Below, piece after piece: positions 2,645-35,410 of a DNA stretch of 63,559 nucleotides. Every line of letters begins with the position of its first letter. The first letter of the stretch is position 1. The translations under genes and the position numbers were made by a program. The DNA lies in the IMG/VR virus record IMGVR_UViG_3300036979_000143, positions 1-63,559 of that record. One strand, 5' to 3'. Source of the DNA: a virus. Below the pieces are notes generated by a model, which was given only the letters and a program-made list of their open reading frames with translations, was not told the DNA's origin and ran no database searches.

Positions 2645-3247
2645 TTAAGGATTATTTACACGTTCGTCAATAGTTTTTTTCAAAACAAATTCAATAAATG
2701 CTTCAACGGCATTTGCCCGGTCAAAAGTCTGATCCATTTGCGTTCCGATAGAATAGTTGTAGTTCGTGTCCACAAGCCTGCAAATCTCTGTCTTGTGTTC
2801 GCTAAAGTTGTTCAACAGCCAATCAGGGAAAAGCACATGATTAGGAGCAGGAGACCCTTTTTGCCACATAGAGAAAGTGCTTTTGTGATCTGGGTTATAC
2901 CGGGAAGGCCAAATCATTCCCTCATAAAGTTCCCAAGAGGGGATAGTCACGACTGCGTATCCTCCGGGCTTTAGGATCTTCATCCAAGATTTTAGAGCCT
3001 CCACTGGGTTGTGCATATGCTCTAGGCATTGCGAAGCATGGACATAATCGAAAGAGTTTGCTGGGAAATACTCATGAATCTTGTTGGCATCTCCATCCTG
3101 AACGTCGAACCCAACGACATCAGGAATCTTAATGAGGTCATCCCCGGCTCCAATATCAATGCCCTTCCCGACGAATACTTTTTCCCAAAAAGATTTCTCC
3201 TTCCCGGAAAGCCTGCGCTCCATTGCTTTTGATGATTCTTGGCACAT
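2645..3247 (-). CDS. Class I SAM-dependent methyltransferase
   Basis: This 200-residue protein has a Rossmann-type methyltransferase pattern: motif I IDIGAGDD (about residues 31-38), an acidic beta-2 end in GFDVQDGDAN, FDYVHASQCLEHMHNP (motif IV region, about 69-84) and KPGGYAVVTIP (motif VI, about 95-105). This is the Methyltransf_11 type that acts on small molecules, sugars or lipids rather than a DNA cytosine-5 enzyme, since it lacks the PC and ENV motifs. It is the last gene of a run with four glycosyltransferase-like genes, spaced 1 nt from its neighbour. It may O-methylate a sugar that those enzymes attach; the substrate is unknown. Confidence 0.85.
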   Translation of the reverse strand: MCQESSKAMERRLSGKEKSFWEKVFVGKGIDIGAGDDLIKIPDVVGFDVQDGDANKIHEYFPANSFDYVHASQCLEHMHNPVEALKSWMKILKPGGYAVVTIPSWELYEGMIWPSRYNPDHKSTFSMWQKGSPAPNHVLFPDWLLNNFSEHKTEICRLVDTNYNYSIGTQMDQTFDRANAVEAFIEFVLKKTIDERVNNP

Positions 3248-3248
3248 A

Positions 3249-3833
3249 TTATGGTTTGTTGGTGATTAGGTCTTGGTATTTGTCGCGGTGAAAAATAACA
3301 GCTTCAGAACACAGCATGTCGTTGTCGCGTGGGAATTGATGCGGTTCTGCCCTGCCCCATTTGTCGTAGATTCCATAGCTATGCTGGATCAGATTTGTGA
3401 AATGGATTCGGTGTGGTATTTTCAAAAGCATCCACATATCCCATCCTTTGCCATGAAAGTCTCCGTCTATGTCTTTGGGTATGATCTCATTGGTTTTTGG
3501 CCCATAAACACCGATTCCGCCAATCAAATCGTGTGGAGGGGTTGCGTTATGCGATAGCATAAACTCCTTTCCTGAAGCTACATACGCAGATTCAATAGTT
3601 TTTAGCCATCCAGATTTAATAGGAATTGCGTCTGGCTCTAGCCAAAAGAAAGCCTCGTCAGGAAACATATCAGCGGCCTGCCGCAGAGCGTAATTGTTGC
3701 GCTTTGGGTACTCTTTTACAGTTTCATCAGCCGGGATGATTACTACCTCTGTTCCGTCCAGTTGGTTGATATAATCCACAAGGATAGAAACCTCATCCTT
3801 TTGACGTTTTGCTGCGACGATTACAGATTTCAT
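3249..3833 (-). CDS. GT-A-like glycosyltransferase (small)
   Basis: This 194-residue protein starts with a short Rossmann-like strand (MKSVIVAAKRQKDE). It contains FFWLEPDAIPIKSGWL around residues 62-77, resembling the acidic metal/nucleotide-sugar site and following segment of GT-A enzymes, and a C-terminal region rich in His, Trp and Asp. It overlaps the upstream gene by 4 nt (ATGA) and is 1 nt from the methyltransferase, so it is part of the same translationally coupled sugar operon. The family is not certain; the context is the main support for a role in glycan transfer. Confidence 0.6.
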   Translation of the reverse strand: MKSVIVAAKRQKDEVSILVDYINQLDGTEVVIIPADETVKEYPKRNNYALRQAADMFPDEAFFWLEPDAIPIKSGWLKTIESAYVASGKEFMLSHNATPPHDLIGGIGVYGPKTNEIIPKDIDGDFHGKGWDMWMLLKIPHRIHFTNLIQHSYGIYDKWGRAEPHQFPRDNDMLCSEAVIFHRDKYQDLITNKP

Positions 3834-4567
3834 TTTGGCAGAGATGCAAAGTCTATGTTTCCGTCCATGCAGTATACTGCTCCGGGATATGGAATAATAC
3901 TATTGGGGGCAATCTCATAAACCTCCTGAATCAAAGGAACTCGCAGTCCTGCGGCGATCCAGTAGGCACTTGATTGATTTCCAATATACAGCTTGCACCC
4001 TGCTATTGCTCTAGCAACTTCTAGGCAATCCTTGGTCGGATAACGGGTGATTTTGCCGAATGATTGAACAAAATCATCATGCTCCTCGTCTGTTCCGATA
4101 AATACAGCATCTTTTCCATATTTATCCATGATTTTCTCCCAAGGAAATTTTTCGTTCCTGTACCTGTGCGACCGATTGATAATCACCAATCCCTTTAGGT
4201 TGTCGTTAGGTTCTACGCTCAACCAAGGCCCATTTATTTCCATGTGCCCGGTGTTCCTATCCACAACGTGAAGGTATCGTGCCATCGAATCCATGAGAGT
4301 TATGTGATCTTGATAGCACTCGCGCCAGTTTGTCGTGTCGTAATCGACGCTGGGGTTTTCAGGGTTCATGGTAGAAGGAATCCCTTGACTATCCAGCAAT
4401 GGTTTTAATGAATCGTATTTATACCCTGACATTGGCACGCCCCATGAGGCATCTGAAACAATAAGCCGTGTTGCGCCTAGCTTCCGATAGATAGGAATAA
4501 ATGCTATAATGTCACCAATATGTCCTTGGTGAAGAACAGTTATCTCTCTTGTGAAGGGAGACTTCAT
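3830..4567 (-). CDS. GT-B / GT9-like glycosyltransferase
   Basis: This 245-residue protein has the layout of a heptosyltransferase-like (GT9) GT-B fold. HQGHIGDIIAFIPIYRKL near the N-terminus resembles the GxGDxxxxxP motif of that family, and a second Rossmann-like half contains VFIGTDEEHDDF, CLEVARAIAGCKLYIGNQSS and AAGLRVP. It would transfer a nucleotide-activated sugar; acceptor unknown. It overlaps both neighbours by 4 nt, embedding it in the five-gene sugar cluster between scaffold and capsid. It is shorter than cellular GT9 enzymes (usually 320-350 residues), so it may be a reduced version. Confidence 0.7.
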   Translation of the reverse strand: MKSPFTREITVLHQGHIGDIIAFIPIYRKLGATRLIVSDASWGVPMSGYKYDSLKPLLDSQGIPSTMNPENPSVDYDTTNWRECYQDHITLMDSMARYLHVVDRNTGHMEINGPWLSVEPNDNLKGLVIINRSHRYRNEKFPWEKIMDKYGKDAVFIGTDEEHDDFVQSFGKITRYPTKDCLEVARAIAGCKLYIGNQSSAYWIAAGLRVPLIQEVYEIAPNSIIPYPGAVYCMDGNIDFASLPK

Positions 4568-5148
4568 TTTTTCATCAGATTCGCCATGATTTCAGACCTA
4601 GACGAATCATTTTGCGTCTTCGCGTGAATTACTTGTTTAGCAAATCCTTTAGTTGCAACTCCTATTCCTAGGAGTTTGTGTTCTGGCGCAACTGCATTGT
4701 CTTGAATGATGTCTGATCGCGATAGTTTCGTGATGGCTGCTGCGGCGTGTTCCTTTGTCGCGTAAAACAGGAATGCCGGGTCTCCGACAATCAACAGCGT
4801 ATCCTTTCCTTCTGATTTATCTGCTGTTTCTGGTTTGAATGACTTATTGAACACATCATAGTCACACATCCAGCCACCACCAGCGGCGTGCAAGGCGCAC
4901 CAACGAGCGAACCTAGCAGTAATCCAATGGAATCTTGTAGTTAGTTCTGGCGGCAGTCCCATAGCACAATTCATCATCCTTTGCTGTAGTTTGTTATAGA
5001 GATGACTTCCTTGGGCGTGACTCCTATTCAGCATCACGGGTTCCCATCCATTTTGCTCCCAGCTTGCTTTCCAATGGTTAGCGCAGGCAAATTCCTCTGG
5101 TTGGTTGGAAAGAGCAATAGACTCGTAATATGCGTATATTTTCTTCAT
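4564..5148 (-). CDS. GT32-type (DXD) glycosyltransferase
   Basis: I chose the ATG at 5146-5148 (MKKIYAYYES) because it follows the stop of the upstream gene by one base; a longer frame would overlap it. The 194-residue product carries ARFARWCALHAAGGGWMCDY followed by DVF around residues 83-105. This matches the R-x(2)-AL-x(4)-GG-x(3)-DxD signature of Gly_transf_sug (GT32) enzymes, with the DxD binding metal and nucleotide sugar. The acceptor is unknown. It overlaps the next gene by 4 nt. This is the clearest glycosyltransferase of the head-module cluster. Confidence 0.82.
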   Translation of the reverse strand: MKKIYAYYESIALSNQPEEFACANHWKASWEQNGWEPVMLNRSHAQGSHLYNKLQQRMMNCAMGLPPELTTRFHWITARFARWCALHAAGGGWMCDYDVFNKSFKPETADKSEGKDTLLIVGDPAFLFYATKEHAAAAITKLSRSDIIQDNAVAPEHKLLGIGVATKGFAKQVIHAKTQNDSSRSEIMANLMKK

Positions 5149-5149
5149 T

Positions 5150-6256
5150 CTAGTATGTTTTAGCTCCAACGTGGAAAATAGGGATTCCGAGGTCAATATG
5201 AGGTTGATGCCCGGCTTGTTTTGCCCTGATGCAGAACGATACATCTTCCCCTCTTGCGCTATCGAATGGTCGGAAGTAGTCGTACTCGTAATCAGGAACG
5301 TCGATTTTTAGGCTATCGCCAAACTTTTCGCGAATGCTTTGGAAAACCTTCCTGTGGATAAGGATAAACCCTGTTCCAATCCAATCCACCGGGACTACAG
5401 CATCTTCGTACTGCTTTGCCCGGTTGTATAGAGATGGGTCGCTGCACATCAGCGCACCATCCTCCTGCCTTCCGAAGTAGGCACCGCCAACCAATGTTTT
5501 GTTGGCACCAATCAGCCTGTGAATTCCATGCCTTTGCAACTGGTTATCTTGAAGATTCCTAGCTGCCTGCACCCAATACCTCATCCATGCAGGACGACCG
5601 ATGGACGGGATGATGTCGTCATCAATCATTAGCATCCATTTTGCGTCAGTTTCTAGGAACTTATGGGCGAGCCTGTTCCGAGAATGCTCAATCTTTGCGT
5701 CACCAATTGACATATCGAAACGGATCTTGTCCCTGCCAAAATCAAAAGCAAAAGCTACTTGTGTAGCGGCAGTTACAGGATTAGTTGCCTTGTACCAAGG
5801 CCAAGCAACAAAAATATCCCTGCCGCCGAACTCGCAACGATAGCTTGGCATCCCATCGCTGTTCCTGCTTTCGGTAATCGGATTATAAAAGCTCTCTTCC
5901 GCTTCAGGCAGAGAAATTGATCCTAGGATTTGCGGGTTTGCCTCTTCGCGAAGCAGTTCTGCAACGTCTTCAGGCATTGCTTCTGGTTCTTTTTCGGTTT
6001 TGTCTCGCGTGTCCTTAATTGGTTCTAAATCGCGTGTGGAACGCTGTGGAACATCACTTTTTGCTTCATATGAAGCATTTTCTGGATTTAACAGGGGTTC
6101 CGGGGTCGATTCTGCGACTGGTTCGCGTTCCTTGACGATTGGATTGCCATCCATTCGTTTCGGTTCTGGAATCGGAGTTGCGAAAGGATTTGCCGACTCA
6201 AGGGCACGAGCCGTTCGGTCGGTCATCGGTGTTCTGACCGGGTCTCTTGGTGCCAT
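5150..6256 (-). CDS. GT2-like glycosyltransferase with long disordered N-terminus
   Basis: In this 368-residue protein, residues 1 to about 130 are Pro/Glu/Arg-rich and look disordered. The rest resembles a GT-A enzyme: WMLMIDDDIIPSIG around residue 215 is the metal-binding acidic motif, GTGFILIHRKVF is a typical acceptor-side strand, and RGEDVSFCIRAKQAG and LGIPIFHVG supply the late ED and HxG motifs. A GGAG lies about 9 nt upstream of the ATG. It starts 2 nt after the scaffold gene. The disordered tail could tether the enzyme to a virion or DNA partner; that is inference. Confidence 0.78.
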   Translation of the reverse strand: MAPRDPVRTPMTDRTARALESANPFATPIPEPKRMDGNPIVKEREPVAESTPEPLLNPENASYEAKSDVPQRSTRDLEPIKDTRDKTEKEPEAMPEDVAELLREEANPQILGSISLPEAEESFYNPITESRNSDGMPSYRCEFGGRDIFVAWPWYKATNPVTAATQVAFAFDFGRDKIRFDMSIGDAKIEHSRNRLAHKFLETDAKWMLMIDDDIIPSIGRPAWMRYWVQAARNLQDNQLQRHGIHRLIGANKTLVGGAYFGRQEDGALMCSDPSLYNRAKQYEDAVVPVDWIGTGFILIHRKVFQSIREKFGDSLKIDVPDYEYDYFRPFDSARGEDVSFCIRAKQAGHQPHIDLGIPIFHVGAKTY

Positions 6257-8150: not shown

Positions 8151-10562
8151 TTATGCGGCAGTAGGTGGTTTTGCCGGGTGAGATACGCTTTGAACAACAC
8201 CGCTTTGGCCTCCCATATTCATGAACGAATCGGGCTGTTGTCCGGGAGCAGGAGCAGGCTGACTAGGTGCTTGCCTGCCACCTCCTGAAGGAGATGCTGC
8301 CGCAGGAGCAAGCTCTGGCGGAGGAGGAACATTCTGCCCTGCCGTGATGTGTGTAACTGCCTGCTTATACAGATCCCTAAACTTGGCAACCTCTTCCTTG
8401 TTTGCTCCTTTGGCTTCTGCTTGCGCGATGTGACCAGCGAAATGCTTCATCGCTTCGATTAGCGGTGCAACTCCTTCGGGTGGCAACGATCCGTTGGGGA
8501 TGCTCTGGAAGACAGGCATTAGCTTCTGCGCCATCGTGGACAAGTGAACAACATCATTGTCGCGAGGAGACACAGGAACTTCCTGCCCGGCGATGATTGC
8601 TTGAAGCTCCAGCACCTGTTGCCGGGTAGCCTCAATCGCAATAGCCTCGATCTGATCCTTCGGAAGAATTACAGATTTCGCAATAGTGTCTCCCATCTTC
8701 TTGCTCCAATCCAGACGCATCAGTTCGTCCTGATTGACGTTCGGGTTTCCTGAGTACCGCTGGATCAGCGAATCCAGAATCATTACGTCCTGTTGAGCGG
8801 TGTCTTGGGTGAGTTGAGCAGCCGGGCTGTATGCCATGAGCATGATGTCGGATGGCGGAATATTCTGCTCAATCATAGACAGACAGCATGAGATTGCGTC
8901 CTCGTCCAAGTGAGGAGGAACTTCAAACGGAACTAGGAATGTCGGGAGTTCCATGAAGGATCTATCGAAAGCGCCCACCACTTCACGCTTTGCCCAAACG
9001 GCATCGGGAATCTGTTGGCGTTTGATGTCCAGCAGAGTTTTGAGTTCAGCCGCAGCTTTGACATGTTCCGGGTGACAGATCCCACGTTGCATGCGTTCGA
9101 CTGCTTTAGAAAATTGCCTGCTAAAACGCATCAGCACTCCTTCGCGAAGCTGGTTTTCAATAGCAGCAACACGATTAACTTCTGAAGCGGTTTTCCTAGA
9201 CTGTGTTTCTACGGGAGATCCGGGAAGGAATGTTCCAACCTGAATTTCAGCTAGGTTACTGGCAAACTGGTCTAGGCGAAGAAAATCATCTACGTCTGCC
9301 GGGACATTCTGCGGAACAACCTCGTATCCTTCCGACACGAAAGCCACAGGATGATGGACAGTCAAAGGAGGCACGCCAACCTTGGCATTCGGGCCTTTCT
9401 TCAGCAGGAGAAGTCCTTTCAAATAAGAGTTGTCAATGACCAGATTCCTCGCCTTTTCAATGGCAATGTGGGAGTTGTATAGGTCGCGCCCTGCTCCCCT
9501 GCTGGACATCAGGCTTCCTGATCCCACCTCTACCGCAAACAGGGCAATGCACTCGCTCATGTTGTTGTAGCGATCCAGTTGCGTGCAGATTTCTTTTCCA
9601 GATTTGTCGTCGAACAAGAATCGGCTGATTTTGCCATGAGGCTCCTTGATAAGAAGCTCTCCTAGCTCAACATATTTCGCATCGTTCTCGTAGCTGGCAC
9701 CATAGCTTCCTTCGCGAGTCCAATCCTCGTACCTTCTTGCGTCTTCGTCCGCATCAAGCGTCCTCCCGGCAGGAATCGCGTTGTTGATTGATTCCACAAG
9801 ATTGTTGATATGCCAGCCTGCGGCGGCAGAAATCTCCGGGTCTTCAAGAACAGGAAGGAGATCAGCAATCTGGTATCTGCGCTTCCTCGCCCAAATTGGT
9901 GTCTGATCTGCCACTTGAGGTGTTTCGATGCTGAAAAAAGTGTAGTCTTGCCTCAAGAACTCTGGTTTCCAATCGCGCATATCGTCCCAGCATAGAGCGC
10001 AATAACCAAAGGTAGTGTTTTCATGGACAACTTGAGCAAGAAGGTCATCAAACCCACTCCACCCACGAACGCATTTTGTAACCGCATCACGAAATACTTT
10101 TGTCTTTTGCTCTGCGTCAACGGACTCAATCGGATACTTGGCAAACGTGATCGTTGTGGCCTGCTCGACCACTTGACGGAAAGGAGGCTGAATACGGCTT
10201 ACCATCGTAGAAAGAAACCCGGTTGGGCGATTGCTGCGCCAGTTTTGCCCCATGCTTTCCAGCTTCTTATTCTGATAGGGTGGCTCCAGATTCAGCTTTT
10301 TTTGAATAAGCTGATTCTTTTTGTTGCGCTCTACGTTCTGCTGTTTGAGCCTGCGGTATGCGCTGTGCGCCTGTTCTGTGTCTCTGAATGTTCGCCTGAC
10401 TTGAAGAGTTTTCGGATTGACTGTTTCTGAATTGCCTGTGCTTGGATCAACTACCTCAAGATCCAGAATCCTTGGTTTGTCGTGCGAATCAGAAATCCTT
10501 GCAGACCTATTTGCAAACTCGTCTGTAATGATCGGGTCTAGCGGTTTTAGTATTGTAGCCAT
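8151..10562 (-). CDS. Portal protein
   Basis: This 803-residue protein is the large gene immediately after the terminase/tRNA/modification region and before scaffold, where portal proteins lie. The N-terminal 100 residues are basic and charged. The central region is alpha/beta with long helices, and SRKTASEVNRVAAIENQLRE near residues 455-475 is typical of the helical part of podovirus-type head-tail connectors. The C-terminus (from about residue 735) is Pro/Gln/Gly-rich and disordered. It would form the dodecameric DNA entry ring and dock TerL. The size is close to P22-like portals (about 725) and larger than T7 gp8 (536). Confidence 0.88.
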   Translation of the reverse strand: MATILKPLDPIITDEFANRSARISDSHDKPRILDLEVVDPSTGNSETVNPKTLQVRRTFRDTEQAHSAYRRLKQQNVERNKKNQLIQKKLNLEPPYQNKKLESMGQNWRSNRPTGFLSTMVSRIQPPFRQVVEQATTITFAKYPIESVDAEQKTKVFRDAVTKCVRGWSGFDDLLAQVVHENTTFGYCALCWDDMRDWKPEFLRQDYTFFSIETPQVADQTPIWARKRRYQIADLLPVLEDPEISAAAGWHINNLVESINNAIPAGRTLDADEDARRYEDWTREGSYGASYENDAKYVELGELLIKEPHGKISRFLFDDKSGKEICTQLDRYNNMSECIALFAVEVGSGSLMSSRGAGRDLYNSHIAIEKARNLVIDNSYLKGLLLLKKGPNAKVGVPPLTVHHPVAFVSEGYEVVPQNVPADVDDFLRLDQFASNLAEIQVGTFLPGSPVETQSRKTASEVNRVAAIENQLREGVLMRFSRQFSKAVERMQRGICHPEHVKAAAELKTLLDIKRQQIPDAVWAKREVVGAFDRSFMELPTFLVPFEVPPHLDEDAISCCLSMIEQNIPPSDIMLMAYSPAAQLTQDTAQQDVMILDSLIQRYSGNPNVNQDELMRLDWSKKMGDTIAKSVILPKDQIEAIAIEATRQQVLELQAIIAGQEVPVSPRDNDVVHLSTMAQKLMPVFQSIPNGSLPPEGVAPLIEAMKHFAGHIAQAEAKGANKEEVAKFRDLYKQAVTHITAGQNVPPPPELAPAAASPSGGGRQAPSQPAPAPGQQPDSFMNMGGQSGVVQSVSHPAKPPTAA

Positions 10563-10565
10563 ATA

Positions 10566-11144
10566 TTAGATATTCATCCAGCAGTTGTCGGGAAGAGAAG
10601 AAGACTTGTGAATGTGCTCTTTGTCAAAGAAAATAGCTGTCCTGTTGTCGTGACGCATCAAAGAGCAACCACCAAGTACCTGACTTGATGGCGTGTCTCT
10701 GCCCTGCCTGACACTCGCACAAATCCTGTCAGTCGCGTTGACACAGCTATTGCAACCAGACCTCCAGTTTACATTATTAGAGCATCCACGGCACGTTTTT
10801 GCGCGTTCTTCGGCAAGTTCATCGTTAACCAAAACGTGTTTCTGGTTGCTGTGCAGAATGTTCTTCGCCCACATCTGAATATCATTCAGCAATTCAGAAG
10901 AAGCTGTAGGAGCATTGATAGAAGTGATGGCAACCATGTCAACGCCATGGCAGAAAGTAGGCCAATTCGTGCAAATGAAAGAATTGACATCTCCTTCGAT
11001 GTCGCCTGCCGGGAGATTGTTTTCTGCGCGATAGGATTCAACTGCTTTGATTAGAGAATCATAGCTATGTCCAGTTATTTTTGCATCACCATCAATGTAA
11101 TGCCATCCACCGGGGGGAATCATTCCGATAATAGGTTTAGCCAT
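10566..11144 (-). CDS. Cys-rich putative zinc-binding protein next to portal
   Basis: This 192-residue protein carries a dense Cys array, CRGCSNNVNWRSGCNSC at about residues 118-134, followed by further Cys around 142 and 155. This looks like a zinc ribbon or treble-clef knuckle. The N-terminal half (GMIPPGGWHYIDGDAKITGH) has no recognised fold. It is 3 nt upstream of the portal gene and just downstream of the ParB-dioxygenase-glycosyltransferase cassette, so it may belong to either the modification cassette or the portal operon. Function unknown. Confidence 0.65.
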   Translation of the reverse strand: MAKPIIGMIPPGGWHYIDGDAKITGHSYDSLIKAVESYRAENNLPAGDIEGDVNSFICTNWPTFCHGVDMVAITSINAPTASSELLNDIQMWAKNILHSNQKHVLVNDELAEERAKTCRGCSNNVNWRSGCNSCVNATDRICASVRQGRDTPSSQVLGGCSLMRHDNRTAIFFDKEHIHKSSSLPDNCWMNI

Positions 11145-11186
11145 ATTTGGTAGGTATGTTATTTAGAATGTTGAAGCAAGTCGATT

Positions 11187-12152
11187 TTAACAGATTACGG
11201 AGCAAATCGTTTGCGAAACGCTCTTTGGCTCGTGATGTTTGAGGCATTCCCGTCCATTTTCTATCAATTTGGGATCTGGATCAGATTTCAAAACTTGAGC
11301 TAATTCAAACGAATCGAACACGGAAATGCAGTTAAATCCGTGTTTCATTTCTCCTTGATCGCCAAGTGTCCACTTCCTATTGAGAACCAAAGTTGCCCCA
11401 GCGTCCCATGCCTCAAGGAAAGTGTATTGCGATCCAGACCCGTCTTGTTTAATGGCCGACATATCTACTGCAAACTTCGCAGTAGCCGCTAGCTTTGCGC
11501 CAGCACCAGATTCTTTAGGGAATTTGCCAAAATATAGCTCTTTCCATCTCGGGAACTGATTGTCTAGTTTGTGGAAAGCATACATTCGGTTCTCTGCGCC
11601 GAAGACATGGCAACGCAAATCACTATCAAGCAATAGGTTAGCTCCACAAATCAGGTTAGTGTGCTTATCCCAATCAATTCTTGAGTACGCTACAGCATTC
11701 CTGATCTTTTTGGCAACAGGACGAACAGAGCAGTACGGATGAGGGAGATAATGCGCTTTCAGTCCTTTGCTTTCGATTACGGGAATCATGTTCCAGCGAA
11801 TTCCGAAAATATGTTTAGCCTTCTGGTAGAACGGCATACGTTCTGCTGTCAGTTCCGTGGGATCATGGATTACATATGTGAGTTTGTTGGGAATGCGCTT
11901 GAAAAGCTGGCTCGTCTTCTTATCAAGAGCCGTGATTACTTTTGCGCCGGGAAGTTCAGCTACGGCATCGGCGGTGATCTTCTGTGCATAGACATTGCCA
12001 GAATACAACTCCTTGATATTACCGAACTTATTACCTACGACGAATAGATGAACATTATTACCCTGCTGTGATAAGCAGTTGAAAAGATGCTCGGTGAAGC
12101 TGACCCATCCGCCAAACTTTGGTTCGGCAGCGTAGATGAGATTGATCCTCAC
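11187..12152 (-). CDS. GT-B glycosyltransferase of the DNA-modification cassette
   Basis: This 321-residue protein begins with MRINLIYAAEPKFGGWVSFT, the first strand and glycine loop of a GT4-like GT-B enzyme. It has a second-domain start VAYSRIDWDKHTNL (about 153-166) and a C-terminal nucleotide-sugar site YTFLEAWDAGATLVLN (about 244-259) with the conserved acidic residue. It overlaps the dioxygenase gene by 4 nt (ATGA), which couples their translation. The likely reaction is transfer of a sugar onto a hydroxymethylated base made by the upstream enzyme, by analogy with published TET/JBP-GT phage operons; the acceptor is inferred. Confidence 0.8.
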   Translation of the reverse strand: MRINLIYAAEPKFGGWVSFTEHLFNCLSQQGNNVHLFVVGNKFGNIKELYSGNVYAQKITADAVAELPGAKVITALDKKTSQLFKRIPNKLTYVIHDPTELTAERMPFYQKAKHIFGIRWNMIPVIESKGLKAHYLPHPYCSVRPVAKKIRNAVAYSRIDWDKHTNLICGANLLLDSDLRCHVFGAENRMYAFHKLDNQFPRWKELYFGKFPKESGAGAKLAATAKFAVDMSAIKQDGSGSQYTFLEAWDAGATLVLNRKWTLGDQGEMKHGFNCISVFDSFELAQVLKSDPDPKLIENGRECLKHHEPKSVSQTICSVIC

Positions 12153-12991
12153 GCTGTTGTCTCTGATTTGAGTTTTTCTTTAGCTTGGTCGGAACGCTTT
12201 CGCTCGTATTCCGTCCTGCGGTTGCGAAGAATCTCCAGTTCAGTTCCCGGAGTCTCGCAATTCCACATCTGCTGAAGGCTGTAATAGACAATCGTGTATC
12301 GCTTTGCGTCCGGGTGAGTCTTCCTGATTGGGGTAACGCCATGAAGAATGCCCTGTCCGTCGAAAAGAGATAGGGATTTGTCGCTGATCTTTAGATGAAT
12401 GTCGATCTCTGGCATGGCAAGGTATCCACCTTCGATGCCTTTCTTGAACCCGAACATGGCAGAATATACGCCTCGGTAGTTGCCTGCGTCAAAATGGTAT
12501 AACAGGGGATTGTTATCGTTGATGATGCCGCTAGTGAACATCGTGTCTCCCATGCGGTAGTTGCCGAGAACCTTTTCATCAGTCAGTTGTTGGTGCATAG
12601 CTGCCAACTCTGGATTGCCTGTGCGGTAGTATTTAGCCGCAACGGAAGCAGCTTTCATAATTGCTTTATGGTGTTCAGGTGCGTCGCCGGCAAGCGAGGT
12701 TGCCCGGCAAGGCGCATTACGAAGAACATTACGGGGAGCGTACCCGAAGATCCTTGAAGTCGTTACAAGACCACTGGTGCGCGTTGACTTGTCATAGCGG
12801 ATCTTGGTCAAAGCGTCATAGAACGCTGTCAAATCCTCTGGAACCCGGTCGATGTAAATGATCGCCAACTTCCCGTCGATGTAAATGAGCGCATCCTCGG
12901 CAACAATTTGAGAGCAATCCTTCTCGTCTGCCCTGCGGAAGCGGTATTGTTTTACGTCAATATCACGCCTTGTTGCGTGTATGATCTTCAT
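12149..12991 (-). CDS. TET/JBP-like 2-oxoglutarate/Fe(II) dioxygenase
   Basis: In this 280-residue protein, the core FTSGIINDNNPLLYHFDAGN holds the H-x-D iron site (H166, D168). DGQGILHGVTPI gives the distal His (H217) and RYTIVYYS the Arg that binds 2-oxoglutarate (R231). The GGYLAMPE strand between them is typical of the phage oxygenase domain grouped with TET and JBP (PF20515-like). These enzymes hydroxylate the methyl group of 5-methylcytosine or thymine in DNA. SD AGGA lies 8 nt before the ATG. It is 2 nt from the ParB gene and overlaps the GT gene. No cytosine-5 methyltransferase is visible in the genome, so thymine may be the substrate. Confidence 0.85.
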   Translation of the reverse strand: MKIIHATRRDIDVKQYRFRRADEKDCSQIVAEDALIYIDGKLAIIYIDRVPEDLTAFYDALTKIRYDKSTRTSGLVTTSRIFGYAPRNVLRNAPCRATSLAGDAPEHHKAIMKAASVAAKYYRTGNPELAAMHQQLTDEKVLGNYRMGDTMFTSGIINDNNPLLYHFDAGNYRGVYSAMFGFKKGIEGGYLAMPEIDIHLKISDKSLSLFDGQGILHGVTPIRKTHPDAKRYTIVYYSLQQMWNCETPGTELEILRNRRTEYERKRSDQAKEKLKSETTA

Positions 12992-12993
12992 GG

Positions 12994-13647
12994 TTATTCC
13001 TGCTTGGAATTGATGTCGTATCCGTTCGACTCAAGAATATGGCTGATTACCTCCGTATTATTGGAGAGGCCAAACTTCTCGGCATAGTCACCCATAGCGT
13101 CAACTACCTTGGCATACTCCTCAAGAGGGTAAACTAGGATAATCTGGCGAACGCTTGCGTCCTCAAGATTCCCGGCTTCGTCCTTGGGGGTGCGAGCATT
13201 GTCCTCATTGGTGATGGTTTCCATCTCTTGACCAATTTGCGTGAACATCTCTAGCTCTGCGGTGGAGAACCCAAGAATCTCTAGGTCGATCTCCGTCTCC
13301 TTCAGGTCAGCCAACTCTAGCTTCAACATCTCCTCGTCCCACCCGGCGTTGAGCGCGATGCGGTTGTCAGCAATGACGTAGGCTCGCTTCTGCGTGTCGG
13401 TAAGATGTTCAAGGCGAATGCAAGGAACTTTCTCAAGCTGAAGTTTCTGTGCGGCGAGAACTCTGCCGTGGCCGGCAATAATGTCATTGTCGAACCCGAC
13501 AAGGACAGGGTTATTGAAACCAAACTCACGGATACTTGCGGCGATCTGCGCAACTTGAGCCTCGTTGTGAGTGCGACTGTTCCTAGCGTAAGGGATCAGT
13601 TTATTCAGTTCAATTTGTTCGATTTGAGGAGATTGATTTTTCTTCAT
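12994..13647 (-). CDS. ParB/Srx-fold DNA-binding protein of the modification cassette
   Basis: This 217-residue protein has a ParB-like nuclease/Srx domain over residues 10-105: LIPYARNSRTHNEAQVAQIA, then VGFDNDIIAGHGRVLAAQKL, then VIADNRIALNAGWD. The C-terminal half is acidic and lacks the usual ParB dimerisation region. In phages, stand-alone ParB domains are repeatedly found beside DNA methyltransferases and TET/JBP enzymes, where they are thought to target modification or use nucleotides. Here the gene is first in an operon with the dioxygenase (2-nt gap) and glycosyltransferase. A role in chromosome partition is unlikely because no ParA is present. Confidence 0.88.
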   Translation of the reverse strand: MKKNQSPQIEQIELNKLIPYARNSRTHNEAQVAQIAASIREFGFNNPVLVGFDNDIIAGHGRVLAAQKLQLEKVPCIRLEHLTDTQKRAYVIADNRIALNAGWDEEMLKLELADLKETEIDLEILGFSTAELEMFTQIGQEMETITNEDNARTPKDEAGNLEDASVRQIILVYPLEEYAKVVDAMGDYAEKFGLSNNTEVISHILESNGYDINSKQE

Positions 13648-14063: not shown

Positions 14064-15944
14064 CTAGTCAGAGAAGTCCACGAATTCCATTCCGTCAACC
14101 ACGCTCTTAAGTTTCATGTCTGAATTATCCACCTGACGTTTTGTTTCAGTCATGGAGGCTGTTGATCCTGACCTTTGACGCATTAAATATACGAGAATAG
14201 ACAGGGAATCAAGAGCATCCGGGCTACTGGATCTGGTTCGTTTGCAGTATTCTCCTTTGCTTTCCACCCTGACCATGCCCTTGCCTTTTTGTTTGTAGCG
14301 ACGAGCAGTTGCTTGCCTGACAAGATCCTCGTTGCGGAAGCCGGGAGAAATCTTCAGGTATTCAAACTCTAGATATTTTGCTAGCCCGAATAGCAGTTCC
14401 GTAACTACTCCGTTGTATAGCTCGTTAGCCTTTTGGCTGTCTTCACCTAGGATGTGGGTATCGGAAGCTGCCCATGAATAGTTGATTCCCATGACTTCCG
14501 TGCCAAATAAAGTGCAAAGGCTATCGTGAATGCCTGACCCATTGCCTGTGCGGTCAACGGCTAGCCAGTTCGGTGCTATTCTCATCTGCTTGCAGAAGCG
14601 TATAATTGCTTGCGTTTGCTCTAGCGTGGCTCGCTTCGGGAATGGCATCTGCGAATCCAGTTGCAGAGCAATCCTAGGTTGCTTGAATTCGTGAAACGTC
14701 CCGGCTTGATCAGTCCATCCATCGCATAGGCCAAAGCGTCCGTAGCTACAAAGAACCTGATCGTTGCCTTCAAGAGCCAAATCGAATGCGGCAAGAGGAA
14801 CAACCGGGCCTACGAAACGAAGCATACCCATAGCGTTATTCATCATGGCCGGGGTGATGATCGACATGGCTTGCCCTTCCTCGGGGAACCAACCTCTCGC
14901 CATCGTCATTGCTTCTGCCGTGCGACCACGGGACATATATCCCATGAATCCTTGGTATGTCTGCAATCCTTGGTATACGATCTTGCGCTCAACTACGTTC
15001 TCGCACCGGGCAGCGTCTAGGCGAAGAACATGAAAGCCTTCCTTGGATTCCCACTCGAAATCCTCCTCGCAGTCGATTGATGACCAACCATCCCTTGGCT
15101 CACAGCGTTGACCGAAATCGCTAGTGCGATCCTTCGGGTTGCTGGCTCCGAAGATTTTGATATGTCCGGGAGAGCCTTCAATATCTGCCGTAGAGATAAT
15201 GTTGTTGATACCTTCCCACACGCCAGCCGGGACTTCCTCGGCTTCGTCTAGGATTACATGAGTACGGGATAAACGACCCCATCGTTTATGAGCAGAACCG
15301 AAACGTGGGGTGGGATGGAACCCGCGTAGTGTTCCGTGACCAGACTCGCCTTTCGGGATTGCGACCAGATGAATACCCTGTTTGGCATCGTCGCTGGCTT
15401 GGATCGAAGTAACTAGGTCTTCAGTCTTGTGGAACTCTGGACGAACAAGTGCCGTGCGATGGAAGTTCTTGATGCTGGCAAAGATATTGCGTTCGGCGTG
15501 TTCACGGGTCAAAGAGATGGTCTTGATATTGGTGTAGAAAGGGTCTCGGAACCAGTCGAGATAGAACCACGCGGCAGCACCGAAAGATTTGCCCATAGCT
15601 CCTGCGCCTTGGATTAGGAGAAGATCGTGATCGAACAGGCAACGCCAAGAGTCGCGAGAGGATTTAGGCCTCCAATCATAGACTTCCTGACCCCACAGGA
15701 TGGTTGCCCCGGCTTCGAAATGATCCTTGTCTAGTAGGTGCTGAACGAATTGAAGAGTGATTTGCTTTGCTAGTTTTATGTCTATCTCAAGTTCTTTGGG
15801 AGGATTTGCCGACCCCTCGCCTAGGATGATCTCTGCGGCGTGCAGGATGCCTCTCTCCTCGTCGGAATCGACAGCGGCACGGATCTTCTCGGCTATTTTG
15901 ATTGCAGACTCTACGGAACGAGTCGGTGCTTTTATTTGATTCAT
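14064..15944 (-). CDS. terL: Terminase large subunit (TerL)
   Basis: This 626-residue packaging motor has Walker A GAGAMGKS at 113-120 (a degenerate P-loop with Ala in place of Gly/Thr positions, as often in TerL) and Walker B VILDEAEE at 230-237 with catalytic Glu. The RNase H-like nuclease domain has acidic residues in AAFDLALEG (D388), LAVDRTG (D464) and SPDALDS (D576/D579). ATP hydrolysis drives DNA into the procapsid through the portal and the nuclease cuts concatemers. The gene follows TerS with a tRNA and an opposing small gene between, which is an unusual interruption. The first 80 residues are an extra helical region. Confidence 0.93.
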   Translation of the reverse strand: MNQIKAPTRSVESAIKIAEKIRAAVDSDEERGILHAAEIILGEGSANPPKELEIDIKLAKQITLQFVQHLLDKDHFEAGATILWGQEVYDWRPKSSRDSWRCLFDHDLLLIQGAGAMGKSFGAAAWFYLDWFRDPFYTNIKTISLTREHAERNIFASIKNFHRTALVRPEFHKTEDLVTSIQASDDAKQGIHLVAIPKGESGHGTLRGFHPTPRFGSAHKRWGRLSRTHVILDEAEEVPAGVWEGINNIISTADIEGSPGHIKIFGASNPKDRTSDFGQRCEPRDGWSSIDCEEDFEWESKEGFHVLRLDAARCENVVERKIVYQGLQTYQGFMGYMSRGRTAEAMTMARGWFPEEGQAMSIITPAMMNNAMGMLRFVGPVVPLAAFDLALEGNDQVLCSYGRFGLCDGWTDQAGTFHEFKQPRIALQLDSQMPFPKRATLEQTQAIIRFCKQMRIAPNWLAVDRTGNGSGIHDSLCTLFGTEVMGINYSWAASDTHILGEDSQKANELYNGVVTELLFGLAKYLEFEYLKISPGFRNEDLVRQATARRYKQKGKGMVRVESKGEYCKRTRSSSPDALDSLSILVYLMRQRSGSTASMTETKRQVDNSDMKLKSVVDGMEFVDFSD

Positions 15945-26475: not shown

Positions 26476-26931
26476 TTACTCTTTTGGGATACTTTTTTCG
26501 GAATAGATGGCGAGTTTTGAAGGCCAAATATAAGGCAAATCGTCAGGAATCTCATCACCGAAAATGGGCCTGTAATGCTCTGGCATTTTGCGCAAGAGGT
26601 TGCTCTGGTGAGACAAACAAAGTTCCGTCTCGCTGATCCATAGAGGCTCAAGGCAATAGGGCAAAGTAGCTTGTGCTTCGCGCATATTCTCAAGCATCGT
26701 GTCTTTGTATCCCCGGCCTAGCCATTCTTCGCAACAAGCCATGCCGTATTGGAGCAGTTGCCACTCATATCCAGCCCACATTTTTGCGGCAGGGTGGTTG
26801 CGCCAACCCTTCGTGATGCCAGCTAATGCGCGATATATTTGCCAAACTTCGACTCGCTGTTTCCCTAGGCGTCTATTATCAAGACAAGCGGCAGATGTTT
26901 TGTAGGATTCGTATGGTAGGAATGTTTGCAT
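26476..26931 (-). CDS. Pyrimidine dimer DNA glycosylase-like protein (MSMEG_6728 family)
   Basis: This 151-residue protein has an N-terminus MQTFLPYESYKTSAACLDNR followed by RLGKQRVEVWQI, WRNHPAAKMWAGYEWQL and CCEEWLGRGYKDT, a pattern recognised in Pyr_excise (PF03013)/MSMEG_6728-type proteins. The family includes T4 endonuclease V-like repair enzymes that nick at UV dimers, though activity of this branch is not proven. It may also act on modified bases, which would suit a phage with a hypermodification cassette; that link is inference. Confidence 0.78.
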   Translation of the reverse strand: MQTFLPYESYKTSAACLDNRRLGKQRVEVWQIYRALAGITKGWRNHPAAKMWAGYEWQLLQYGMACCEEWLGRGYKDTMLENMREAQATLPYCLEPLWISETELCLSHQSNLLRKMPEHYRPIFGDEIPDDLPYIWPSKLAIYSEKSIPKE

Positions 26932-34717: not shown

Positions 34718-35410
34718 TTAAAAAGAACGCTTTTCCCATGCCTCGCGAGCGTGTTCCACGGAAATCGTCGGCTTCCCGATGCGATCGTTCACATCGTTAT
34801 GGAGATGAACGCTCCACGCAAACAAATCTTGCCAAACCGGGGGATTCTCCGAAACGTATTTTCGGAAATGTTCAGCGCATGGGCAGTCTCCAAAATTGAG
34901 TGCAGAAGCCCATTGCTCAAACCATATCGTATCATCTGTTCCTTTGTGGCGTAGTGCAAATAGATGCAACTCTGCCCAATAGCGAGAAATATTCAAGGGA
35001 GTGATTTGATCGGATGGTTTTGTTGCGTGAGCGCGATCAACTTCATTGGCTGAGTTTTCCACCCAACGCTGATGCCTATCCCAATCTATTCCCAAGTGCT
35101 TGCATACTTCCATTTCAATCCTCATCGCGAGAGCGTGTTCCCGGCGATATGGTGCGTTCTTATTGTCTCCCGGCTCGTCTAGTTCTGGGTTGGCAATATC
35201 CCAAGCAGAAACTTCTTCCTCGGTGATCCCTGCTTTTTTGCAGGCCCACGCCTCCACCATTTCGTGCAATGCTACTAGGAAGGCACTATCGTCCTGACCG
35301 CCATATTCAGGCACAAAGACTTGAAGTGTCCCGTCAGGAAGGAACCTCCAGTCTCCGCAAGTGCTGTATCGAATGGCGAACGGATCAACCGATTTAATCT
35401 CAATCTTCAT
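34718..35410 (-). CDS. HExxE metal-site / Erv1-Alr-like sulfhydryl oxidase fusion
   Basis: This 230-residue protein seems to have two parts. Residues 1-110 contain LVALHEMVEAW (H49, E50, E53) and a later H92, like a metal site. Residues 140-222 resemble Erv1/Alr: RYWAELHLFALR, WFEQWASALNFGDCPCAEHF and WSVHLHNDVNDRIGKP, the last being the HNxVN FAD-binding motif. The active site reads CPC (C176, C178), a CxC rather than the normal CxxC. It might oxidise thiols or be a non-catalytic relative. It overlaps the ATP-grasp gene by 11 nt, so the two probably act together. Confidence 0.7.
   Translation of the reverse strand: MKIEIKSVDPFAIRYSTCGDWRFLPDGTLQVFVPEYGGQDDSAFLVALHEMVEAWACKKAGITEEEVSAWDIANPELDEPGDNKNAPYRREHALAMRIEMEVCKHLGIDWDRHQRWVENSANEVDRAHATKPSDQITPLNISRYWAELHLFALRHKGTDDTIWFEQWASALNFGDCPCAEHFRKYVSENPPVWQDLFAWSVHLHNDVNDRIGKPTISVEHAREAWEKRSF

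What the first reader, a model, noticed from the sequence alone, without database searches (positions are those of the whole stretch)
11187..13647. ParB - TET/JBP-like dioxygenase - glycosyltransferase cassette: likely DNA hypermodification without a cytosine methyltransferase
Three consecutive genes (2-nt gap, then ATGA overlap) encode a ParB-fold protein, a 2OG/Fe(II) dioxygenase with HxD, distal His and Arg of the TET/JBP branch, and a GT-B glycosyltransferase. TET/JBP-GT operons in phages are known to make hydroxymethylated and glycosylated bases, usually 5-methylcytosine supplied by a C5 methyltransferase. I see none here (the only SAM enzyme at 2645-3247 lacks PC/ENV motifs), so the substrate may be thymine (J-like) or a host-made 5mC. 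A Cys-rich protein sits downstream.
Basis: partly seen in the sequence, partly recalled or inferred. Interest (0 to 1): 0.85.

Follow-up and report, generated by a model that had tools for sequence, protein, structure and literature searches.

The report
Phage DNA-base oxidation and sugar-tagging cassette
An uncultured phage carries a three-gene cassette that most likely oxidises thymines in its own DNA and then attaches a sugar; in close relatives of the phage the sugar-adding gene has been swapped for unrelated tagging enzymes in exactly the same slot, which suggests that phages exchange chemical disguises for their DNA as modules.

Summary
Window 11187-13647 (minus strand) encodes ParB, a TET/JBP dioxygenase (Pfam PF12851 above cut-off) and a glycosyltransferase, tightly packed. 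The third gene hits no family model, but its AlphaFold model (pLDDT 92.7) is a clear GT-B/GT4-type glycosyltransferase.

About 100 related loci show that ParB-TET beside the terminase genes is a widespread phage cassette with an interchangeable "decorator": this GT-B, the GT-A enzyme TAGT, or a P-loop kinase plus amino-acid:DNA-transferase-like protein. Sister phages with the same terminase, portal and Cys-rich gene carry one decorator type each, directly after a TET 75-84% identical to this one. The type changes at least 17 times on the TET tree.

The window has no C5-cytosine methyltransferase and no thymidylate-synthase-type hydroxymethylase; 43 of 49 related contigs also lack the methyltransferase. 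One sister pairs a similar TET with a kinase family known from 5hmdU-modified phages.

Best reading: TET hydroxylates thymine in replicated DNA to 5hmU and the GT-B glycosylates it, giving a J-like, probably alpha-linked base. Chemistry is untested. The Cys-rich gene belongs to the phage backbone. The system type was predicted before; the GT-B family, absent from 50,697 phage records, and the clean three-way swap appear new.

The parts
12994..13647 (-). ParB_N-domain protein (217 aa), first gene of the cassette; proposed DNA-binding/targeting partner
   Evidence: PF02195 29.2 bits vs cut-off 26.3; PHROG ParB-like partition proteins and ParB-MTase fusions, E about 1e-53; a ParB lies within 1.7 kb of TET in 92 of 102 TET ORFs
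12149..12991 (-). TET/JBP-family 2OG/Fe(II) dioxygenase (280 aa); proposed thymine hydroxylase acting on DNA
   Evidence: PF12851 38.3 bits vs cut-off 34.9; H166, D168, H217, R231 invariant in 72/72 relatives; relatives in mycobacteriophages and Rhodococcus phage Tonitrus
11187..12152 (-). GT-B-fold (GT4-like) glycosyltransferase (321 aa, GTG start); the decorator gene
   Evidence: AlphaFold pLDDT 92.7; leading Foldseek PDB hits are GT-B/GT4 enzymes, including T4 alpha-glucosyltransferase with HMU-DNA 1y8z E 2.9e-9; 19 of 23 loci found by GT alone have TET adjacent
10566..11144 (-). Cys-rich 192-aa protein; flanks the cassette, judged part of the phage backbone rather than of the system
   Evidence: 60-75% identical in sisters that carry different decorators; DNA homology resumes at 11149/11146 just before it
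14064..15944 (-). Terminase large subunit, landmark upstream of the cassette
   Evidence: 81-90% identical in sisters L004/L005/L007/L009; no relative among isolated phages

Best explanation
The cassette makes a glycosylated 5-hydroxymethylpyrimidine in phage DNA after replication. ParB binds phage DNA and helps load or target the modification enzymes (inferred). The TET/JBP enzyme hydroxylates the 5-methyl group of thymine in DNA to 5-hydroxymethyluracil (family shown, substrate inferred). The GT-B enzyme then transfers a sugar from a host nucleotide-sugar to that hydroxyl, giving a base-J-like nucleotide (fold shown, acceptor inferred from the gene swap). The likely linkage is alpha, because GT4-type GT-B enzymes are retaining, unlike beta-linked base J (inferred). 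The purpose is most likely protection of the DNA from host nucleases. The decorator is modular: relatives keep ParB-TET and exchange the third gene.
For: TET membership and catalytic residues. GT-B/GT4 fold of the third protein. Same-slot replacement in sisters: TAGT in L004/L005 (25.1 bits, just under the curated cut-off), Ploopntkinase3 (over cut-off) plus an ADDT-like protein in L007/L009. DNA homology to L005 stops inside the last 20 nt of the TET gene and resumes 5 nt before the Cys-rich gene. Maximum-likelihood tree: ((window, L004) 100/98, L007) 100/97; at least 17 decorator changes overall. Independent direction: 19 of 23 loci found with GT alone have TET within 600 bp on the same strand, and 2 of the 4 exceptions are cut by a contig end. 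No C5-MTase in the window and none in 43 of 49 contigs. No thymidylate-synthase-type hydroxymethylase in the window and 13 related contigs. The kinase in a sister points to 5hmdU: 5hmdU DNA kinase acts on 5hmdU in M6/ViI-type phages (PMC6449724), and Rhodococcus phage Tonitrus with ParB-TET-ADDT-kinase was annotated as thymidine hypermodification (PMC11955845).
Against: No biochemistry or mass spectrometry was found for any member seen here. The kinase argument for thymine is indirect. Three related contigs do carry a strong C5-MTase (L022, L025, L105), so some members could act on 5mC, and host-made 5mC is not excluded here. N171 of the HxDxxN motif (68 of 72) is compatible with either base in my view. 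TAGT in L004 is slightly below Pfam's cut-off, and the ADDT label for L007 rests on my own iterated profile, not on a Pfam hit. ParB's role is a guess.
Confidence: 0.67

Rival explanations
1. Same enzymes and same logic, but the TET acts on 5-methylcytosine made by a host (or undetected) C5-methyltransferase, giving glycosylated 5hmC at a limited set of host-methylated sites.
For: Several TET-family enzymes, including phage ones, act on 5mC (established knowledge; Burke et al. 2021, from memory). Three related contigs carry a strong C5-MTase. The best PDB sequence match is the 5mC-modifying enzyme CMD1, though weak (E 0.04).
Against: No C5-MTase in the window, in the 58.6-kb sister contig or in most relatives. 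A sister TET is paired with a P-loop kinase of the 5hmdU type. Depending on host 5mC would be fragile and the marks sparse.
Confidence: 0.2
2. The GT-B enzyme does not act on DNA: it is a capsid-, lipid- or cell-surface-glycan-modifying enzyme that lies next to ParB-TET by chance, and ParB-TET alone make 5hmU.
For: The phage has a separate cluster of GT-like and methyltransferase genes at 2645-6256 that is conserved in sisters, so it may glycosylate something else too. L008 and L010 have ParB-TET with no recognised decorator nearby.
Against: The GT slot is replaced exactly by TAGT or by kinase plus ADDT-like genes. 19 of 23 GT-family loci sit beside TET across divergent phages.
Confidence: 0.1
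3. The cassette modifies RNA (tRNA or mRNA) rather than DNA; mycobacteriophage relatives of the TET are annotated as queuine tRNA-ribosyltransferase.
For: Record annotations and the label of phrog_6059.
Against: The protein matches Tet_JBP, not tRNA-guanine transglycosylase. Its partners are DNA-type (ParB; kinase; ADDT; terminase next door). The annotation looks like a propagated error.
Confidence: 0.03

Closest known systems
Actinobacteriophage ParB-TET-ADDT-kinase clusters (Rhodococcus phage Tonitrus, mycobacteriophages such as Prince)
   Same: ParB followed by a TET/JBP gene near the terminase, no C5-MTase gene annotated in the stretch read; predicted thymidine hypermodification
   Different: Decorator is kinase plus amino-acid:DNA transferase, not a glycosyltransferase; TET about 30-38% identical
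TET-associated glycosyltransferase (TAGT, PF20691) systems
   Same: TET plus glycosyltransferase logic; TAGT occupies the same slot in sister phages L004/L005
   Different: The window's GT is GT-B, unrelated in fold to the GT-A TAGT (fold statement PMC13216743)
Base J pathway of kinetoplastids (JBP1/2 + JGT)
   Same: TET/JBP thymine hydroxylase followed by glycosylation of 5hmU in DNA
   Different: Phage operon with ParB; GT-B instead of the JGT type; linkage probably alpha rather than beta; [quoted passage not shown]
T4 alpha-glucosyltransferase pathway
   Same: GT-B DNA glycosyltransferase fold (1y8z match)
   Different: T4 puts hydroxymethyl in at the nucleotide level (dCMP hydroxymethylase); none here; no sequence-level match to the T4 enzyme families in Pfam
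M6/ViI/phiW-14 thymidine hypermodification
   Same: 5hmdU as common handle; kinase-type decorator in sister L007
   Different: There 5hmdU enters through the dNTP pool (PMC6449724); here it would be made in DNA by TET

Membership tests
TET/JBP dioxygenases (PF12851) | Pfam match above curated cut-off | tested here: met
   38.3 vs 34.9 bits
TET/JBP dioxygenases (PF12851) | HxD...H metal triad and distal Arg for 2-oxoglutarate | tested here: met
   H166, D168, H217, R231, invariant in 72/72
TET/JBP dioxygenases (PF12851) | Oxidises the 5-methyl group of T or 5mC in nucleic acid | not testable with these tools
   needs enzyme assay
Phage 5mC-TET systems | C5-cytosine methyltransferase in the same phage | tested here: not met
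   PF00145: none in window; 6 of 49 related contigs match, 3 of them strongly
Pool-level hydroxymethyl systems (T4, M6/ViI) | Thymidylate-synthase-family hydroxymethylase (PF00303) | tested here: not met
   0 of 14 records including the window; records may be incomplete
TAGT (PF20691) glycosyltransferases | Pfam match / GT-A fold | tested here: not met
   No hit for the window GT; its model is GT-B
GT-B, GT4-like glycosyltransferases | Two Rossmann domains matching solved GT-B/GT4 enzymes | tested here: met
   pLDDT 92.7; top PDB matches GT4 enzymes E 1e-9 to 1e-11, TM about 0.7
GT-B, GT4-like glycosyltransferases | Transfers sugar to hydroxymethylated DNA | not testable with these tools
   Inferred from slot swap only
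Base J synthesis | Beta-D-glucosyl-5hmU in DNA made by a JBP-type enzyme and JGT | not testable with these tools
   Sugar and linkage unknown; the GT differs in fold from the TAGT class
ParB_N domain proteins | PF02195 match above cut-off | tested here: met
   29.2 vs 26.3 bits

The most novel reading that the evidence does not exclude
An uncultured phage lineage makes a new J-like base, an alpha-glycosyloxymethyluracil, by post-replicative TET oxidation of thymine steered by ParB. The cassette is a general 'handle plus exchangeable decorator' platform in which sister phages swap a GT-B sugar transferase, a GT-A TAGT, or a kinase/amino-acid transferase pair (and perhaps O-methyltransferases), changing the chemical identity of their DNA in one recombination step to escape host defences.
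Probability: 0.4. Interest if true: 0.8.

Novelty: new variant of a known kind. Interest (0 to 1): 0.62.

Why it matters
If true, it would be a bacterial-virus counterpart of base J, made by direct oxidation of thymine in DNA; [quoted passage not shown] The three-way decorator swap between sister phages is a natural experiment: a 75-84% identical TET feeding three unrelated transferase systems makes the roles of the enzymes testable by mix-and-match expression. It also adds a DNA-glycosyltransferase candidate family with no dedicated Pfam or PHROG model and no relative in 50,697 phage records, and supports ParB proteins as shared accessories of phage DNA modification. An open function for ParB next to DNA-modifying enzymes was noted independently for the CmoX system (PMC12783734).

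Tried and rejected
1) First AlphaFold job on a 2-sequence GT alignment gave pLDDT 43 and was not used; a 26-sequence alignment fixed it. 2) Profile search of the GT against PDB sequences found nothing real; only fold comparison worked. 3) tblastn of two divergent GT members and of TerL against isolated phages: no match, so host and lineage stay unknown; genome contigs gave only four distant TET relatives. 4) The idea that the other GT/methyltransferase cluster (2645-6256) belongs to the DNA system: its genes are largely kept in sisters with different decorators, so it was set aside. 5) The Cys-rich gene as a cassette member: rejected, as it tracks the portal. 6) RNA-modification reading from the 'queuine tRNA-ribosyltransferase' labels: rejected on the Pfam result. 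7) Iyer 2013, Lee 2018/2022 and Burke 2021 are not in the paper library, so what I say of them is from memory or from citing papers.

Full report
WHAT IS THERE. On the minus strand, between the terminase large subunit (14064-15944; tRNA-Gln and tRNA-Trp lie between) and a Cys-rich gene plus portal (10566-11144, 8151-10562), three genes are packed head to tail: ParB 12994-13647, TET 12149-12991, glycosyltransferase 11187-12152. The ParB/TET gap is 2 nt; TET stop and GT start overlap as GTGA. ParB_N and Tet_JBP are both above Pfam's curated cut-offs. The GT has no significant Pfam or PHROG match of its own; single relatives weakly match Glyco_trans_1_2. With a 26-sequence alignment AlphaFold gives pLDDT 92.7 and pTM 0.91, and Foldseek's best solved structures are GT-B/GT4 enzymes, with T4 alpha-glucosyltransferase bound to HMU-containing DNA among them at E 2.9e-9. 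GT4-like hits are generic, so this shows fold and not substrate. The closest viral model is an unnamed uncultured-phage protein (TM 0.87).

RELATIVES. A TET alignment found 410 encoding stretches in IMG/VR, of which 80 loci were kept; a GT alignment found 23. Catalytic H166, D168, H217 and R231 are invariant in 72 of 72 non-redundant TETs. A ParB gene lies within 1.7 kb of 92 of 102 TET ORFs, and upstream in 61 of 68 with at least 2.5 kb of upstream sequence. Searching with GT alone, 19 of 23 loci have TET within 600 bp on the same strand; two of the four exceptions are cut off by a contig end. The ParB-TET-GT association is therefore real and spread over divergent phages. Among isolated phages, relatives of the TET sit beside ParB at the terminase end of mycobacteriophage, Rhodococcus and Arthrobacter genomes, where Tonitrus was annotated as a thymidine hypermodification system (PMC11955845). 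The GT family and the terminase of this phage have no relative in 50,697 phage records.

THE SWAP. Sister contigs share TerL (81-90% identical), portal, the Cys-rich protein (60-75%), ParB (60-82%) and TET (75-84%). In L004/L005 the GT slot holds a protein matching TAGT (PF20691, 25.1 bits, just under the 27.5 cut-off, E 2e-5). In L007/L009 it holds a P-loop kinase (Ploopntkinase3, over cut-off) and a 377-aa protein related to ADDT by iterated profile but without a Pfam hit. DNA homology between window and L005 runs to 12167, inside the TET tail, and resumes at 11149, just before the Cys-rich gene, so the decorator gene alone was exchanged. The replacing genes have lower GC than their neighbours in L004 and L007. 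On the maximum-likelihood TET tree ((window GT-B, L004 TAGT) 100/98, L007 kinase/ADDT) 100/97, and at least 17 changes among the three decorator types are needed (16 without the longest branches). This is the main new result. It argues that TET makes a common hydroxymethyl handle and that the third gene decorates it, and it argues against a chance neighbour.

SUBSTRATE. The window has no C5-MTase (PF00145), no thymidylate-synthase-type hydroxymethylase (PF00303) and no N6/N4-MTase of PF01555. Of 49 related contigs 43 have no PF00145 match; three have a strong one. The phage's replication genes are of the host-dependent kind (DnaC-like loader, RecT, exonuclease, SSB, RusA), which fits modification after replication. 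The kinase in the sister cassette is of the type that phosphorylates 5hmdU in DNA in thymidine-hypermodified phages (PMC6449724; family link through Tonitrus). Thymine is thus favoured; host-made 5mC is not excluded.

MECHANISM. Shown: gene content, catalytic residues, fold of the GT, module exchange. Inferred: TET converts T to 5hmU in DNA; the GT adds a sugar from a host nucleotide-sugar, probably with retention (alpha), since GT4-type GT-B enzymes and T4 AGT retain configuration (established knowledge); ParB targets or loads the enzymes on DNA; the result protects against restriction or other nucleases. ParB-domain proteins also accompany phage DNA carboxymethyltransferases and MTases, with unknown function (PMC12783734), and ParB of this window matches PHROGs of ParB-MTase fusions, which fits a shared accessory role.

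NOVELTY. TET/JBP phage modification systems, TAGT and ParB-TET clusters were predicted before (Iyer et al. 2013 from memory; PMC11955845; PMC13216743). New here: a GT-B decorator family without its own model in Pfam or PHROGs and absent from sequenced isolates, and the clean three-way decorator swap in sister phages. [quoted passage not shown] Verdict: a new variant of a known kind, of solid interest, with biochemistry as the deciding step.

Noticed in passing
window 2645-6256, minus strand: Five-gene cluster (class I methyltransferase and four genes that look like glycosyltransferases, most without family hits) next to the major capsid gene. All five are kept in sister L116 and three in L117, whatever the DNA decorator; perhaps capsid or surface glycosylation.
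   Followed up: partly
window 34718-35410, minus strand: Erv1/Alr-type sulfhydryl oxidase domain (PF04777, over cut-off) in a phage genome; no match in the stretches of the sister contigs that were searched.
   Followed up: no
window 26476-26931, minus strand: Pyrimidine dimer DNA glycosylase (PF03013, T4 DenV type), a DNA repair gene in a phage that probably modifies its thymines.
   Followed up: no
L018:635-1318 and L070:7385-8161: FkbM-type methyltransferase (PF05050, over cut-off) beside TET in two phages with no recognised sugar or kinase decorator; could O-methylate the hydroxymethyl group, a further decorator type.
   Followed up: partly
L099:3417-7029: ParB, then a 597-aa radical-SAM protein (PF04055), then this GT-B family, with no TET: a possible different chemistry for making the handle.
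   Followed up: no
L102:1211-3709: TAGT-like, GT-B and TAGT-like genes in a row without a TET nearby; possible oligosaccharide on another handle.
   Followed up: no
L066:5105-6004 (also L068): Another GT-B-like gene (weak Glyco_trans_1_2 match) between ParB and TET, outside the window's GT family.
   Followed up: no
L019 and L025/L026: Two ParB-TET pairs in tandem in one phage, possibly with different specificities.
   Followed up: no
PHROG 6059 and mycobacteriophage records such as NC_022328: TET/JBP proteins are labelled 'queuine tRNA-ribosyltransferase' in many records, apparently a propagated misannotation.
   Followed up: no
L009:4278-5101: The TET frame is split in this contig (89 and 163 aa pieces) whereas near-identical L007 has an intact frame; sequencing error or decay.
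   Followed up: no
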